From the NCBI GenBank assembly GCA_021785795.1, contig JAJYEK010000211.1:1-5922 (forward strand): a stretch of 5,922 nt of DNA, in the 5' to 3' direction. This DNA is from Pseudomonadota bacterium. Its GTDB lineage: Bacteria; Pseudomonadota; Gammaproteobacteria; Acidiferrobacterales; UBA6901. The stretch's first letter is position 1, and the number at the start of each line of letters is the position of its first letter. The notes under the pieces are model-generated. The model worked only from the letters and a program-made list of their open reading frames with translations. It did no database searches and was not told the origin of the DNA. The position numbers were made by a program, and so were the translations under genes. Positions 690 through 5,922 of the stretch are shown here, piece after piece.

Positions 690-1577
690 CTAGTCTTGCT
701 CCCGCGTGTACCGCCGGGCAATGCCGAGCAACCCCACTAGGCCGGATGCGAACAGCCACGCAGCACGCGGCAATGGTACCGGGCTGGTAAGAAATTTACC
801 GGATGCTGAGGTGTATGAGCCGGGTCCGTTCAGGGTTAGCGTGACATGCGGAGGGTCATACAGGTCTGCGGTCGCGATGTTGAAGCTGTTGTTTGCCGCG
901 GCGCCGAGAGCGAAGGCGATCTCGGTGGGGGTATTGTTGGCGAGCGGGATCGACAGCGACAGGGTTTCGGAGGGATTGCTTGCATTGAGCACCGTCACGC
1001 CTGATCCGAAGGGGTCGGAACCCGAACCGGAGCCGCAGGTCGACCCCGCCGTCAAGCCGACGAGGTACCCTGCACAGGCCCCGCCGAAACCAACGTCGGT
1101 AAAACTTCCGGACACGCTAAAATTGAGCGTTGCTGTCTCGCCGGCCGTCACGCCGGAGAAAGTCAGCGTGTCCCAGAAACCGGCGCCGGCCGCGGCGCTG
1201 GACCCGGTTGTCCCGTCCTCTTGCGCGTAGGCTTGCAGCACGCCGGTAGATAGATCCGCGGCCGACTTTGCCGAGCCGATTCCGGCCACGATCGATGACG
1301 AGTTCGAGACGGTCGTGAACGGATTTCCGAGCGTGTTCTGGCAGGTCGATCCGAAGCACGGTGACACGCTGCTCGCGCTCAGAGTGCCGTAGGGGTACAG
1401 GGCCACCGGCGCGCCGGAGAGTGCGTTTTCCACATATGCAATATCGGGGTTGCCCACCGTGCTCGCGCGGGCCGATGCTGACCAGCCAGCTGCCAGCAGC
1501 ACCGGGATCGTCGCAACGCAGACGAACTGCAGTTCCCTGCCAATCTGGCGGGGACGATGTATGGGATGGTTCTTCAT
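690..1577 (-). CDS. PEP-CTERM (VPLPA-type) sorting-signal secreted protein
   Basis: A 295-residue exported protein of unknown specific role. Residues 1-38 look like a signal peptide: a basic N-terminus (HRPRQIGR), a hydrophobic stretch about 18-31, and a likely cleavage after Ala-Arg-Ala at 36-38. The mature part is rich in Ser, Thr, Gly and Asn and looks beta-rich, with cysteines at 74, 79, 168 and 181. The C-terminus (267-295) has the tripartite sorting signal: VPLPR, a hydrophobic helix (AAWLFASGLVGLLGI) and basic ARRYTR. In this family the tail is recognised by exosortase and the protein is released to the surface or to exopolysaccharide. An in-frame ATG upstream (1784) would add 69 residues, but this start has GGAGGAGA seven bases before it and puts the signal peptide at the N-terminus. 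The motif's last Ala is Arg here (VPLPR). No exosortase is in the window, so processing would depend on genes elsewhere. Confidence 0.85.
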   Translation of the reverse strand: MKNHPIHRPRQIGRELQFVCVATIPVLLAAGWSASARASTVGNPDIAYVENALSGAPVALYPYGTLSASSVSPCFGSTCQNTLGNPFTTVSNSSSIVAGIGSAKSAADLSTGVLQAYAQEDGTTGSSAAAGAGFWDTLTFSGVTAGETATLNFSVSGSFTDVGFGGACAGYLVGLTAGSTCGSGSGSDPFGSGVTVLNASNPSETLSLSIPLANNTPTEIAFALGAAANNSFNIATADLYDPPHVTLTLNGPGSYTSASGKFLTSPVPLPRAAWLFASGLVGLLGIARRYTREQD

Positions 1578-1584
1578 GATTCTG

Positions 1585-1592
1585 TCTCCTCC
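1585..1592 (-). promoter_or_regulatory. Strong Shine-Dalgarno of the PEP-CTERM gene
   Basis: On the minus strand GGAGGAGA lies seven bases before the ATG at 1577. It is a near-perfect match to the anti-Shine-Dalgarno sequence and fixes the start, ruling out the longer frame from 1784. Confidence 0.85.
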
Positions 1593-1733
1593 ATTGAAAT
1601 GATGGATACCTGTGAGCGGAAAACCTTTTTCCGGAATGCACCGGCCCGACGCAGCCTCGCGGGCATCGATGCTCAGGCACTGCCCCGTTCGCCCGTTCAT
1701 CCAGTACCGTGTGGATGCTAGCAGTTCGGGGAT

Positions 1734-1753
1734 TACAGATTGGGTACAGATTG
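1734..1753 (-). repeat. Tandem 9-mer CAATCTGTA, 11-bp period, upstream of the PEP-CTERM gene
   Basis: On the plus strand TACAGATTG occurs at 1734-1742 and again at 1745-1753; read from the minus strand it is CAATCTGTA-cc-CAATCTGTA. The 11-base period is about one helical turn, as expected when two subunits of an activator bind the same DNA face. The site lies about 160-180 bases upstream of the minus-strand ATG. That it binds a regulator is inference only. Confidence 0.35.
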
Positions 1754-2096
1754 CGGATAGATTAAGGAAAAACCCGGCTTTCAATGTGGTTTCCCTGTCC
1801 TTGGTCTGGAGCGACCTGGCACGGCCTCAGGAGGTTGCGCTGCACCCCGTGACGCAGGGGCGTGAGCACAGTTCTGGGCTCGAGCGCTGCCGTGAAGGGC
1901 CGGTTTGGGCTTCTCGGCGCGTCACGACCATCGGCATGCGGTGCATCGGTATCCGTGCGCGTGATATGCTGTTTGACGCCGAGCCGGGGTAAGGACAAGA
2001 GCAGTCTCAAAGAAAGGCGCCGGAACCGATTGGCTCGATTTTCCGTGGCGTGCCGGGCGCATCGCGTGGCGGCCATGGCGGGGACTCTGGCGTTGC

Positions 2097-3193: not shown

Positions 3194-4062
3194 TCCGCTG
3201 GTCGCGCATGCACGCCGCGCTTGCGGGCGTAGCGCTCATTCTGGTCACCAATGCTGTACTGCTGCTGAGTGTGGTCTACAACCGCTCCGGGACTCCGGGA
3301 GGAACATTGGTCCTGTCTCAGCGCGAACTCCGGCTGCCCGCTTACGCCGTGGCCGGAAGGGAGAACAGCGGACTGGCACTGCGCCTCGAATGGCGGGTGC
3401 TCGAAGACGCGGTCGGCGGTGCTTCCCGGGCGGCGGCGAGCTATTCCGGCGGTACGCCGGCCTGGCTCAATAAGGCCAAGCTGGCGGCGCTGGGCTTTGA
3501 CGTATCGAAACCGGCGGACACCGCCGAAGGCCGCTTGTATTATCGGAAGGTGCTTTCCAAGGAGGTGTTGCTGGTGCTGGAGCTGGCCGGTCCGGCGTAC
3601 CAGACGGTGCTCGATGACGCACGCAAGCAGCTGCAGGATGCGCAGGCGCTGCGCGCAGCCGATCCTTCGAAGAAGGTGCTGGAGCAGCGGGTGCGCAATG
3701 CCACTGCACTGCTCAGCCGGGAAGAGACCCAGAGCAGCCGGCTGTTTGTCGTGGACGCCGGGCGGGATGCCCAGGCGCTGCGGGCCCGATATCCCGACCG
3801 CACGAAGTACGCCCTCATGCGCGGCCAGGTGTCGCTGCGGATCGTCCAGATCGATGGCCGGCCGCGGCTGTCCGGATACATCAGCGGTCTTGCTATCGAC
3901 GAAGTCAACGTGCCGCGCGCCTACCGGCGTGCCTTTCTGCCATGGCTCGACCCATCTGGGCATAGCGGAACCCCGAGCCCACCACGGTACGAGGTGTCGG
4001 TCGCGTTTGGCAAGCGGCTGGAGCCGTGGATCACCGCCGTATCCGTTCCGCCGGGATCATAG
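3190..4062 (+). CDS. DUF4824-family membrane-anchored protein
   Basis: A 290-residue protein with one N-terminal membrane anchor (about 8-29) after a basic start (MIRWSRMH), so most of it should face the periplasm. Features I associate with DUF4824 are the NRSGTPGGTLVLSQREL segment just after the anchor, WLNKAKLAALGFDV at 92-105, the YYRKVLSKEVLLVLELAG strand region at 117-134, and GRPRLSGYISGL followed by EVNVP at 223-242. Residues 137-180 are charged and probably helical. No catalytic motif is apparent. The ATG overlaps the DUF2157 stop, and AGGGAG (3178-3183) lies just before it, so it can be translated by coupling or on its own. The pairing suggests a periplasmic partner of the DUF2157 protein; the role is unknown. 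The first codons match the family N-terminus as I remember it, and an upstream extension in this frame is only a shadow of the DUF2157 gene. Confidence 0.78.
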   Translation: MIRWSRMHAALAGVALILVTNAVLLLSVVYNRSGTPGGTLVLSQRELRLPAYAVAGRENSGLALRLEWRVLEDAVGGASRAAASYSGGTPAWLNKAKLAALGFDVSKPADTAEGRLYYRKVLSKEVLLVLELAGPAYQTVLDDARKQLQDAQALRAADPSKKVLEQRVRNATALLSREETQSSRLFVVDAGRDAQALRARYPDRTKYALMRGQVSLRIVQIDGRPRLSGYISGLAIDEVNVPRAYRRAFLPWLDPSGHSGTPSPPRYEVSVAFGKRLEPWITAVSVPPGS

Positions 4063-4124
4063 TTCTGTTCGTAGCGCGCCCCGCGCGATGGCGCTCGCGA
4101 AATTCCGCGGCCTCGGTCTCGATG

Positions 4125-4143
4125 GGTGCGTCGGGGACGCACC
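4125..4143 (+). terminator. Hairpin after the DUF4824 gene; terminator or REP-like palindrome
   Basis: GGTGCGTC (4125-4132), a three-base GGG loop, then GACGCACC (4136-4143) form a perfect 8-bp GC-rich stem 62 bases after the DUF4824 stop. No T-run follows, so a standard intrinsic terminator is doubtful. It could stabilise the 3' end of the message or be a REP-type dispersed palindrome. Confidence 0.35.
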
Positions 4144-4162
4144 GTGCCGCGTCCCGGTGGCG

Positions 4163-4218
4163 GTCGTCCGGAAACAGGTCCGGCGGGAATCCGGGCGGTT
4201 GTCGTCCGACACCTGTTT
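4163..4218. repeat. Paired direct and inverted repeats (GTCGTCCG, AAACAGGT/ACCTGTTT)
   Basis: GTCGTCCG occurs at 4163-4170 and 4201-4208. Each copy is followed within two bases by one arm of an 8-base inverted repeat: AAACAGGT at 4172-4179 and ACCTGTTT at 4211-4218. The arrangement is unlikely to be random but is too short to identify as a known element. Confidence 0.3.
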
Positions 4219-4401
4219 TCGCGCCAGACGGGTTGCCGGATCCGTCGCGGGGACCGGGCCGGGCTGGCCGAGACCCCTATTGTAGGGGCGGGAACATAGT
4301 AACGGGGCCGCGGCCTACGCTAAGCCTAACAGCTGCCTCGCATCGCAGGTATTCGCGGCGGCCTTGCTGTTTTGCTGTGCTGCCATGGGATCGGCCTCGA
4401 T

Positions 4402-4442
4402 TGTTGACACTGTCAAGTGCAGCGGAAATGTTGACGGTGTCA
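4402..4442. repeat. Two copies of a TGTTGAC-NN-TGTCA palindromic box
   Basis: TGTTGACACTGTCA (4402-4415) and TGTTGACGGTGTCA (4429-4442) differ at two central bases and start 27 bases apart. The first is part of a perfect odd palindrome, TTGACA-c-TGTCAA (4404-4416). Twin copies of such a box look like binding sites for a dimeric repressor or activator. They sit 36 bases or more upstream of the mqsRA operator and do not resemble the MqsA site, so another regulator is implied. The TTGACA in the first box could also act as a -35 element, but I see no good -10. Confidence 0.4.
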
Positions 4443-4477
4443 GTACTTAATGGGGTGCCCGCTCACCCAACACCCAA

Positions 4478-4486
4478 AATAACCTA
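4478..4486 (+). promoter_or_regulatory. Additional upstream MqsA half-site
   Basis: AATAACCTA at 4478-4486 is the exact reverse complement of TAGGTTATT at 4506-4514, with 19 bases between. It contains the AACCT half of the E. coli MqsA site, has no close partner of its own, and lies just upstream of the putative -35. It may be an auxiliary half-site, spaced about two helical turns from the main operator. Confidence 0.45.
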
Positions 4487-4487
4487 C

Positions 4488-4516
4488 TTGCCAAAAATAA
4501 CCCAATAGGTTATTAT
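4488..4516 (+). promoter_or_regulatory. mqsRA promoter (-35 TTGCCA, -10 TATTAT)
   Basis: TTGCCA (4488-4493) and TATTAT (4511-4516) are separated by exactly 17 bases, each one or two changes from the sigma-70 consensus. The -10 ends six bases before the ATG at 4523, so transcription should start at or within a base or two of the A of that ATG. The mRNA would then be leaderless or nearly so, which fits the absence of a Shine-Dalgarno. The MqsA-type operator covers the spacer and the -10. Confidence 0.6.
4496..4514 (+). promoter_or_regulatory. MqsA operator palindrome
   Basis: AATAACC (4496-4502), five bases, then GGTTATT (4508-4514) form a perfect 7-bp inverted repeat. Its core AACC-N5-GGTT matches the spacing of the AACCT/AGGTT palindrome bound by E. 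coli MqsA, as I recall it. It lies over the spacer and -10 of the mqsRA promoter, as expected for autorepression. MqsA residues that contact this kind of site (Asn97, Arg101) are present in the product of this operon. Confidence 0.7.
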
Positions 4517-4522
4517 CCGGCC

Positions 4523-4820
4523 ATGGAAAAGAATAAACCGCACTATAGCTTTGCCGATCGTGCATTCCCTGATCGCGGCAGGAAAGGTGCGGTTCACGGT
4601 GTCGGCGTTGGCCGGAGGTGCGGCCCTGGGATTTGACTTGGATGGGATCGTCGAGGTTATCCAGGCGCTCGGGCCGGGTGACTTCTACAAGAGCATGACG
4701 ACGTATGCCGACCACATGGTGTGGCAGGACGTGTACCGGCCGGCGACGAGCGCCGGTGAGGTCTACGTGAAACTGACGGTGGTTGAGGATCTGTTGATCG
4801 TATCGTTTAAGGCGCTCTGA
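4523..4820 (+). pseudogene. mqsR: MqsR-family mRNA interferase toxin, frameshifted after codon 9
   Basis: MqsR is a RelE-fold, ribosome-independent ribonuclease that cuts mRNA mainly at GCU. From ATG 4523 the first nine codons read MEKNKPHYS, like the E. coli start MEKRTPHTR. The frame then runs out of phase to a TGA at 4634-4636, giving only 37 residues. From the TTG at 4551 a different frame reads LPIVHSLIAAGKVRF and on to SFKAL (89 residues). Removing one T from the TTT run at 4550-4552 joins them into 98 residues, the length of E. coli MqsR, aligned without gaps. Lys56, Gln68, Tyr81 and Lys96 (restored numbering) are kept, as is FYKSMTTYADH. Starting at TTG 4551 would lose the first nine residues and lacks a Shine-Dalgarno. 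So the toxin may be knocked out, be made by slippage or TTG initiation, or the extra T may be a sequencing error. Identity is near certain; activity is not. Confidence 0.88.
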
Positions 4821-4851
4821 TGACATCGATCAGGAGATCCAGAAAACGGAT

Positions 4852-4857
4852 AGGAGA
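4852..4857 (+). promoter_or_regulatory. Shine-Dalgarno of mqsA
   Basis: AGGAGA lies seven bases before ATG 4865. It favours this start over an in-frame ATG at 4820 that overlaps the toxin stop and would add 15 basic residues absent from the family. It also allows the antitoxin to be made independently of toxin translation. Confidence 0.8.
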
Positions 4858-4864
4858 ACGAGAA

Positions 4865-5281
4865 ATGAAATGCCCGATCTGCGGTAAGGCCGCGCTGGTG
4901 CACGACACCCGCGACCAGCCCTATACCTACAAGGGCGAAACGACGACCATCCCGGCTGTGACCGGCGACTACTGCACGGCGTGCGGCGAGGCCATTCTGG
5001 AAGCAGCAGAAGCGGCGCGCGTGAGCGCGGCCATGCTGGAGTTCAACAAGCAGGTCAACGCCTCGATCGTCGATCCGGAATTCATTGTCCGTGTTCGCAA
5101 GCAGCTCGGCCTCGACCAGCGCGAGGCCGCGGAGATCTTCGGTGGCGGGGTCAATGCCTTCTCGCGCTACGAGAACGGCAAGACCAAGCCGCCGGTGGCG
5201 CTCGTGAAGCTCTTGAGGCTGCTCGAGCATCATCCGGAGCTGCTGGAGGAGATTCGGTCGGGGGGCAGCCGGGCAGCCTGA
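4865..5281 (+). CDS. mqsA: MqsA-family antitoxin and transcriptional repressor
   Basis: This 138-residue protein is the antitoxin of the mqsRA pair. It binds MqsR, covers its active site and represses the operon. The N-terminal zinc domain has Cys3, Cys6, Cys37 and Cys40 in the same positions as E. coli MqsA. The C-terminal half is an HTH-XRE domain with the signature PEFIVRVRKQL (71-81) and EIFGGGVNAFSRYE (90-103), including the DNA-contact residues Asn97 and Arg101. Numbering matches E. coli MqsA through Arg131, followed by a seven-residue extension (SGGSRAA). The start is set by AGGAGA (4852-4857), with 44 bases between the toxin stop and this ATG. The gene is intact, unlike the toxin. Toxin before antitoxin is the usual order for this family and is the reverse of most type II systems. 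Confidence 0.95.
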   Translation: MKCPICGKAALVHDTRDQPYTYKGETTTIPAVTGDYCTACGEAILEAAEAARVSAAMLEFNKQVNASIVDPEFIVRVRKQLGLDQREAAEIFGGGVNAFSRYENGKTKPPVALVKLLRLLEHHPELLEEIRSGGSRAA

Positions 5282-5338
5282 TAACACCGGTCAGCACGGT
5301 TGCTTGCATTGTATGCGTCCACGCGACACCCCATCCAG
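5282..5338. other. Short gap between mqsA and the integrase remnant; no clear terminator
   Basis: These 57 bases separate the convergent mqsA and integrase remnant. I see no strong hairpin with a U-tract on either strand and no tRNA or att-like repeat, so where the mqsRA transcript ends is unclear. Confidence 0.3.
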
Positions 5339-5662
5339 CTACCGCGCTAGGTGATGCGCCCGCAGGTGGGTATGCCGACTCAGCATCGAAAGTGTTCGAT
5401 GTCCCGAGATCCGGGCGATCTCCATGGCATCGAGATCCGTGCGCTCGAAGAGCCGCGAGATCGCCTCATGCCGTAGATCGTGGAATGTCAGCCCTTCTAT
5501 TTCCGTGGCGCGGATGACAAGCTACCAGGCCAGGCTGATTGCGTTCTCGCTCAACCCAAAGACGCTTGGATCTTCCTTGCCCTCGCCGTCCTTGCGGCGC
5601 GGGACTCCAATATGACTCCATTGGAAGCCGAGATAGGCCCTGAACTGAACTAAAATGGTCAT
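5339..5662 (-). pseudogene. Tyrosine recombinase (phage-type integrase) C-terminal remnant
   Basis: Read on the minus strand, this is the end of a site-specific tyrosine recombinase. From about 5605 it reads PRRKDGEGKEDPSVFGLS, then SLAW, an in-frame TAG (5522-5524), then [40 protein letters not shown] and a TAG at 5339-5341. The frame is continuous on both sides of the internal stop. The catalytic box His-Asp-Leu-Arg-His is intact (5482 to 5468) and the Gly-His pair is kept (CAT at 5399-5401). The nucleophile expected in R-Y-THL is His (CAT, 5372-5374), one transition from Tyr. The N-terminal core-binding domain and the first catalytic Arg are missing; an in-frame TAG at 5666-5668 closes the frame upstream, and residues before PRRKDG do not look like an integrase. 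It is inactive on three counts: truncation, stop and lost nucleophile. The ATG at 5660-5662 marks only the frame limit. Confidence 0.8.
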
Positions 5663-5786
5663 TCCCTACCGTAGTCCAATTCCCTTCAAAGCGGACATCC
5701 CCAATGCGTGATACGGGGTAAAAACGCAGGCTGTCTCCTGCTGGTTGCTACCCATCGCCAGGTTATGCAGGAACGTGTCACGGGGT
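5663..5786. other. Gap between integrase remnant and vapB promoter; no gene recognised
   Basis: Nothing here continues the integrase frame or encodes a product I recognise. It may be the deletion junction where the 5' part of the integrase gene was lost. A minus-strand open frame of 66 codons overlaps the vapB promoter and has no family features. Confidence 0.3.
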
Positions 5787-5815
5787 TTGCAGGATCCTGT
5801 TGTGATGTGTATAGT
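5787..5815 (+). promoter_or_regulatory. vapB promoter (-35 TTGCAG, -10 TATAGT)
   Basis: TTGCAG (5787-5792) and TATAGT (5810-5815) are separated by 17 bases. The expected start near 5822 leaves a leader of roughly 20-25 bases before ATG 5845. The -10 overlaps the left arm of an inverted repeat, which suits repression by the toxin-antitoxin complex. Confidence 0.6.
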
Positions 5816-5834
5816 TCTGTTAAACAATACACAT
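5805..5834 (+). promoter_or_regulatory. Inverted repeat, probable VapB/VapBC operator
   Basis: ATGTGTAT (5805-5812) and ATACACAT (5827-5834) are perfect 8-base inverted arms with 14 bases between. They cover the -10 and the expected transcription start, the usual place for an autorepressor site in a vapBC operon. Binding is inferred from position and symmetry. Confidence 0.6.
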
Positions 5835-5835
5835 T

Positions 5836-5840
5836 GAGGT
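5836..5840 (+). promoter_or_regulatory. Shine-Dalgarno of vapB
   Basis: GAGGT lies four bases before ATG 5845, a slightly short but workable spacing that supports this start. Confidence 0.6.
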
Positions 5841-5844
5841 ACCC

Positions 5845-5922
5845 ATGCGCACCAACATCGTCATCCGGGACAAGCTTATGTCGCAAGCGCTTAAGATCAC
5901 CGGCTATAAGACCAAACGCGAG
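5845..5922 (+). CDS. vapB: VapB-family antitoxin, 5' part (cut by window end)
   Basis: The first 26 codons of a probable type II antitoxin, continuing beyond the window. The start MRTNIVIRDKLMSQALKITG followed by YKTKRE matches the N-terminus of VapB proteins of the PF09957 type as I recall it: a short beta strand (TNIVI), then a helix (KLMSQALKITG) and a Lys-Thr-Lys-Arg turn of a ribbon-helix-helix DNA-binding fold. Such antitoxins bind a PIN-domain VapC ribonuclease normally encoded just downstream, which would lie outside this window. The start is supported by GAGGT, a sigma-70-type promoter and an overlapping palindrome. The call is on a short fragment, so the family is likely and the subfamily is not settled. 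Confidence 0.75.
   Translation, partial: MRTNIVIRDKLMSQALKITGYKTKRE

What the first reader, a model, noticed from the sequence alone, without database searches (positions are those of the whole stretch)
4523..4636. MqsR toxin with a one-base frameshift but preserved active site
Seen directly: MEKNKPHYS from ATG 4523, then LPIVHSLIAAGKVRF in another frame from 4551; deleting one T of the TTT at 4550-4552 gives 98 residues. From family knowledge, E. coli MqsR is 98 residues and Lys56, Gln68 and Tyr81 matter for activity; all are in place. The rest of the gene shows no other damage, so the change is recent, a sequencing or assembly error, phase variation, or slippage. An intact antitoxin with a disabled toxin fits selection against a toxic protein.
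Basis: partly seen in the sequence, partly recalled or inferred. Interest (0 to 1): 0.7.

Follow-up and report, generated by a model that had tools for sequence, protein, structure and literature searches.

The report
Broken MqsR toxin, intact MqsA antitoxin
A bacterial toxin-antitoxin pair in which the toxin gene has fallen out of its reading frame near its start while the antitoxin gene is whole; this looks like an ordinary, probably recent loss of a toxin, though a sequencing error cannot be excluded.

Summary
The frame break is really there. The first nine codons of an MqsR-type start (ATG 4523) and the other 89 codons (4551-4817; Pfam MqsR, 2.2e-28) lie in different frames; the ATG frame stops at 4634-4636 after 37 codons. 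Lys56, Gln68 and Tyr81 equivalents and all 41 strongly conserved columns are kept. The antitoxin mqsA (4865-5278) is whole.

A normal short MqsR is not supported: 58 of 66 comparable relatives start at an ATG nine codons further upstream, and the internal TTG/GTG are not conserved. The window's promoter lies 6 nt before that ATG, as in many relatives, so the message is probably leaderless. Phase variation and recoding find no support.

Best reading: a recently inactivated toxin beside a kept antitoxin, near an integrase remnant. Among 85 related loci toxin-only damage outnumbers antitoxin-only damage 16 to 2, but damaged toxins are commoner in metagenome bins (19 of 60) than isolates (1 of 20). 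No reads were available; an assembly error stays open (about 0.3). Ordinary kind; low interest. The leaderless layout of this MqsR subfamily is the more interesting by-product.

The parts
4488..4516 (+). sigma-70-type promoter-like site TTGCCA-17-TATTAT, ending 6 nt before ATG 4523
   Evidence: 10 of 12 matches; 39 of 65 relatives have a promoter-like match ending 4-8 nt before the toxin start, against 2.5% of mononucleotide shuffles. Consensus match, function inferred.
4496..4514 (.). MqsA operator-like palindrome AATAACC-N5-GGTTATT
   Evidence: exact, expected 0.01 by chance in the window; a TAACC-N3-6-GGTTA palindrome lies within 60 nt upstream in 53 of 66 relatives. Binding inferred from the published AACCT..AGGTT motif (PMC4894380, abstract start).
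4523..4636 (+). first piece of mqsR: nine family-like codons from ATG, then out of frame to TGA 4634-4636
   Evidence: no Pfam match as a whole
4551..4820 (+). second piece of mqsR: residues 10-98 of an MqsR toxin in the other frame, with its stop
   Evidence: PF15723 2.2e-28; 3hi2 1.1e-27; active-site residues kept. Called in a public protein database as an 86-aa protein that begins at GTG 4560 (P0001).
4865..5281 (+). mqsA antitoxin, intact, with its own AGGA ribosome-binding-like site
   Evidence: PF15731 6.3e-65 over profile 1-131 of 131, TIGR03830 4.2e-47; AGGA upstream of ATG 4865; the four Zn Cys named for E. coli MqsA (3, 6, 37, 40; PMC4803016 passage) are present (read)
5342..5665 (-). 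tyrosine integrase remnant: C-terminal piece (5342-5521), in-frame stop 5522-5524, upstream piece (5525-5665)
   Evidence: PF00589 6.4e-07 over profile 121-170 of 172 for 5342-5521; no match for 5525-5665; stop seen
5845..5922 (+). start of a VapB-type antitoxin gene, cut by the window end
   Evidence: PF09957 3.0e-08 over profile 1-26 of 47

Best explanation
This is an mqsRA toxin-antitoxin operon whose toxin gene has recently lost its reading frame near codon 10, while the antitoxin gene stays whole. Transcription probably starts at or next to ATG 4523, so ribosomes begin there without a Shine-Dalgarno, read nine MqsR codons, then nonsense to the stop at 4636; no MqsR nuclease, or next to none, is made. 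MqsA has its own ribosome-binding site and is still made; it probably goes on binding the operator at 4496-4514, now without the toxin that would relieve repression. Shown: frames, family matches, operator and promoter patterns, conservation. Inferred: absence of toxin, leaderless start, continued antitoxin function, and that the break is biological.
For: Frame break and family assignment. Own antitoxin and own 86-aa toxin form are each listed on 4 contigs, longest 90,841 bases, one member sequence each, so the listing shows no intact copy of this allele; the next listed toxins are at most 80% identical and the next antitoxin 84%. Toxin-only damage 16, antitoxin-only damage 2, of 85 loci; in metagenome bins alone 15 against 1. 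Breaks at various places in relatives with whole antitoxin, including an isolate with a stop codon in mqsR (L005, Pseudomonas sp. UMAB-08). Other long frames of the window are open through runs of 6-7 equal bases (2098, 2755, 5260), so the contig is not visibly error-prone. The integrase next door is decayed. Promoter position and lack of a strict SD speak for the ATG as the real start.
Against: No reads; the four contigs may come from one assembly or re-deposits. All 41 conserved columns are intact, which also fits an error in a working gene. Damaged toxins are rarer in isolates (1 of 20) than in bins (19 of 60; p 0.017), so part of the damage in relatives may be artefact. In the class sample only two of nine genomes with a toxin match showed a damaged toxin beside a whole antitoxin (one of them is L005's own), and one genome had a split antitoxin instead.
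Confidence: 0.6

Rival explanations
1. The break is a sequencing or assembly error in a working mqsR.
For: No other damage in the 89 codons and no departure at 41 conserved columns; the sequence appears to be a metagenome or other record without a held genome; damaged toxins are commoner in bins than in isolates.
Against: The same 86-aa form is listed on 4 contigs (independence unknown). The junction is not a long homopolymer, while longer runs in neighbouring open frames are read without a break. Errors should hit the longer antitoxin gene at least as often, but it is hit far less in relatives.
Confidence: 0.3
2. A shorter MqsR (86-89 aa) is made from TTG 4551 or GTG 4560 and works, the family's first residues being dispensable.
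For: The public protein database carries it as an 86-aa protein (P0001), and 5 further listed homologues are 83-89 aa. Lys56 and Tyr81 are kept; in E. coli loss of the His7 side chain leaves moderate cleavage (PMC9636575 passage).
Against: No SD-like AGGA/GGAG/GAGG before either codon; codons 10 and 13 are not conserved as starts (TTG 9 of 66, GTG 7 of 66); relatives and the window share the upstream start and promoter position. The short listed homologues may be gene-calling or contig-edge effects.
Confidence: 0.07
3. The frame is switched or bypassed: phase variation by slippage, or ribosomal frameshifting.
For: Only the general point that the downstream frame is still well conserved.
Against: No long simple tract at the junction; codon 10 in relatives is mostly CTG or CTC (46 of 66), so no shared slippery site; breaks in relatives are scattered.
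Confidence: 0.03

Closest known systems
MqsR/MqsA (E. coli mqsRA, type II toxin-antitoxin system)
   Same: Toxin-first order, toxin family PF15723 and antitoxin family PF15731/TIGR03830, operator-like palindrome before the toxin, active-site residues, antitoxin Zn cysteines.
   Different: Toxin in two frames; toxin start lies 6 nt behind the promoter-like -10 with no strict SD, whereas the E. coli copy looked at has a GGGAGG before the toxin ATG and its operator further upstream.
Orphan (unpaired) antitoxins left by decayed toxin-antitoxin pairs
   Same: Antitoxin whole beside a toxin that cannot be made as such; described as abundant in Klebsiella (PMC7192599, passages) and E. coli (PMC10790755, passages); toxin pseudogenes also reported in Acidithiobacillus (PMC4226512, passage).
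   Different: Here the toxin remnant is almost complete and conserved, so the loss is at an early stage, or not real.

Membership tests
MqsR toxin (PF15723) | profile match over the domain | tested here: met
   2.2e-28 over profile 9-94 of 95 for the second piece
MqsR toxin (PF15723) | one open frame of about 98 codons | tested here: not met
   two frames, 37 and 89 codons; 114 of 120 listed homologues are 98 aa
MqsR toxin (PF15723) | catalytic Lys56 and Tyr81 | tested here: met
   both present, invariant in 114 homologues; role from PMC9636575 (passages)
MqsR toxin (PF15723) | mRNA cleavage at GC-containing sites | not testable with these tools
   needs expression or assay
MqsA antitoxin (PF15731) | full-length zinc-finger plus HTH protein downstream of mqsR | tested here: met
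   6.3e-65 over profile 1-131 of 131; TIGR03830 4.2e-47
MqsA antitoxin (PF15731) | palindromic operator upstream of the toxin | tested here: met
   4496-4514, exact, 0.01 expected; binding itself not tested
Orphan antitoxin | antitoxin without a working toxin partner | tested here: inconclusive
   toxin frame broken in the given sequence, but no reads and no genome held; a second mqsR elsewhere in the genome could not be looked for

The most novel reading that the evidence does not exclude
In the MqsRA subfamily to which this locus belongs, the toxin message starts at the toxin's own start codon (leaderless, no Shine-Dalgarno), while the antitoxin has a Shine-Dalgarno. This would be a built-in translation switch: any change in how well leaderless messages are read would shift the toxin to antitoxin ratio, and the toxin frame can be lost without touching antitoxin synthesis, as here. 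E. coli mqsR, the model, does not have this layout.
Probability: 0.35. Interest if true: 0.5.

Novelty: new member of a known kind. Interest (0 to 1): 0.2.

Why it matters
Taken alone, little: one more toxin-antitoxin pair that seems to have lost its toxin first. It is a caution for annotation, because a public protein database carries the remnant as an ordinary 86-aa MqsR protein (P0001). The comparison made along the way matters more: the promoter-to-start spacing suggests leaderless toxin messages in this MqsR subfamily, which could be tested directly by mapping 5' ends, and it explains why toxin and antitoxin can decay independently.

Tried and rejected
Whole genome of the window: none held, so a second mqsRA copy, coverage and strain variants could not be examined. 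Exact search of the first 27 bases of the gene in viral contigs: 0 matches. Phage records: one 72.7% match, 14% of the window, in the DUF2157 region, nothing at mqsRA. Plasmid records: relatives only, none covering 80% of the 4200-5922 query. tRNA and Rfam scans of the window: nothing. Phase variation, recoding and a normal short form: considered and set low.

Shine-Dalgarno scan, result partly against the leaderless reading: with a wider set of 4-mers that includes AGGT, 43 of 65 toxin starts score (81 of 81 antitoxin starts; 12.6% of random 13-mers). I read these as mostly the operator half-site AGGTT at about -16, which overlaps the -10 region and would lie upstream of the transcript, but did not test this one by one. 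With AGGA/GGAG/GAGG only, it is 0 of 66 toxin and 78 of 81 antitoxin starts. The shuffle control keeps base composition only, not dinucleotides, and shared ancestry of the relatives was not corrected for.

The six loci (two of them contigs already counted) have full toxins and antitoxins and were not added. The isolate/bin split was read off the titles by hand. In the class sample the 14 control genomes gave no toxin match and E. coli no antitoxin match over the cut-off, so its negatives are weak.

Papers: only passages were seen of PMC2791442, PMC9636575, PMC6918082, PMC13048404, PMC7192599, PMC10790755, PMC7280312, PMC4226512, PMC3598666, PMC4803016, and for PMC9031893, PMC8138138, PMC8406201 only lines from their reference lists. 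No paper on a frameshifted mqsR stood out in the 19 titles, and none on leaderless mqsR in the 10 listed of 33 or the one; this is not proof that none exists.

Full report
What is there. The window holds, on the + strand, an mqsRA operon. From ATG 4523 nine codons read MEKNKPHYS, after which that frame gives residues unlike the family and ends at TGA 4634-4636. From 4551 a different frame gives 89 codons that are an MqsR toxin by Pfam (2.2e-28) and by similarity to solved E. coli MqsR (1.1e-27). The antitoxin, with ATG 4865, matches MqsA over the whole profile (6.3e-65).

Is it a break or a normal short gene? Of the 120 listed homologues (856 found), 114 are 98 aa and six are 83-89 aa, the window's own 86-aa form among them. 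In 65 of 85 the toxin is whole from a start codon that corresponds to ATG 4523. In the 66 with the whole frame, that codon is ATG in 58, GTG in 6, TTG in 1 and AGG in 1 (L023, counted as lost start). Codon 10, where the window has TTG, is TTG in 9 of 66, and codon 13, where the window has GTG, is GTG in 7 of 66. So the internal codons are not conserved as starts.

The promoter tells the same. The window has TTGCCA-17-TATTAT ending 6 nt before ATG 4523. Of 65 relatives, 49 have a promoter-like match of at least 8 of 12 within 80 nt; in 28 of these the gap to the start codon is exactly 6 nt and in 39 it is 4-8 nt, against 2.5% of composition-only shuffles. An initiation point about 7 nt behind the -10 element would be the start codon itself, so the toxin message is probably leaderless. 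Strict SD-like motifs (AGGA, GGAG, GAGG) precede 0 of 66 toxin starts but 78 of 81 antitoxin starts. With AGGT allowed, 43 of 65 toxin starts score; I attribute these mainly to the operator half-site at about -16, which I did not test case by case. The E. coli copy fetched has a GGGAGG before the toxin ATG and its operator further away, so the layout is not family-wide. An exact operator-like palindrome lies at 4496-4514 (0.01 expected).

How old is the break? Of 41 columns at least 97% conserved in 114 homologues the window departs at none; 90 of the 114 also depart at none. The remnant has therefore had little time to decay, or the break is not real.

Is it an error? No reads or genome were available. 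The window's own 86-aa toxin form and its own antitoxin are each listed on 4 contigs, longest 90,841 bases, one member sequence each. No intact copy of this allele appears among the listed proteins, the next listed toxins being at most 80% and the next antitoxin 84% identical; but the four contigs may not be independent. Neighbouring frames run open through runs of six or seven equal bases. In relatives, toxin-only damage is found at 16 loci and antitoxin-only damage at 2 (p 0.0013). Damage is at various places and includes one isolate (L005). Against this, damaged toxins are commoner in metagenome bins (19 of 60) than in isolates (1 of 20; p 0.017), though within bins the bias is still 15 toxin-only to 1 antitoxin-only. 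In a class-wide sample of 369 genomes, 9 had a toxin match; 2 of these had a damaged toxin beside a whole antitoxin (one is L005's own genome), and one other genome had a split antitoxin with no toxin match. Its control genomes did not ring for the toxin family, so that sample is weak.

Surroundings. Downstream on the - strand lies a tyrosine integrase remnant with an in-frame stop at 5522-5524, then the start of a VapB-type antitoxin gene cut by the window end. Upstream are a DUF2157 and a DUF4824 gene. This fits a worn mobile island carrying toxin-antitoxin genes, inserted beside chromosomal genes (inference).

How it most likely works now. MqsR is not made, or hardly; the Lys56/Tyr81 pair essential in E. 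coli (PMC9636575, passages) is encoded but out of frame with the start. MqsA is translated from its own site. In E. coli mqsA also has promoters inside mqsR (PMC6918082, passages); the consensus scan of 4060-5922 found none inside mqsR here. E. coli MqsR relieves repression by MqsA (PMC4803016, passage), so without it the operon would stay autorepressed (inference). Orphan antitoxins of this sort are reported as abundant (PMC7192599 and PMC10790755, passages), with anti-addiction or regulatory roles suggested there.

Verdict. Observation confirmed; interpretation partly supported. Real recent inactivation 0.6, error 0.3, working short form 0.07, switching or recoding 0.03.

Noticed in passing
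L001-L085 upstream of mqsR; window 4488-4523: Promoter-like -35/-10 sites sit at fixed distance before the mqsR start codon (gap 6 nt in 28 of the 49 relatives with a match), and the toxin lacks strict SD motifs (0 of 66) while the antitoxin has them (78 of 81): probable leaderless toxin messages (wider motif set less clear).
   Followed up: partly
window 5342-5665 (-): Tyrosine integrase remnant with in-frame stop; the place of the catalytic tyrosine reads His by a weak alignment to L084.
   Followed up: partly
window 5845-5922 (+): Start of a VapB-type antitoxin gene running off the window, so a second toxin-antitoxin pair may follow.
   Followed up: no
window 4402-4443: Two copies of a TTGACA-N-TGTCAA-like inverted repeat 27 nt apart (second with 2 mismatches), 0.09 expected; absent without mismatch from the 134 fetched loci. 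Possibly an operator of another regulator.
   Followed up: partly
L054 and L071 and L046: Frame breaks of mqsR in three relatives fall at about residues 26-29, more clustered than the rest; not tested against chance.
   Followed up: no
window 690-1784 (-): Secreted-looking protein whose C-terminal end resembles a PEP-CTERM sorting signal (recalled resemblance; no significant family match).
   Followed up: no
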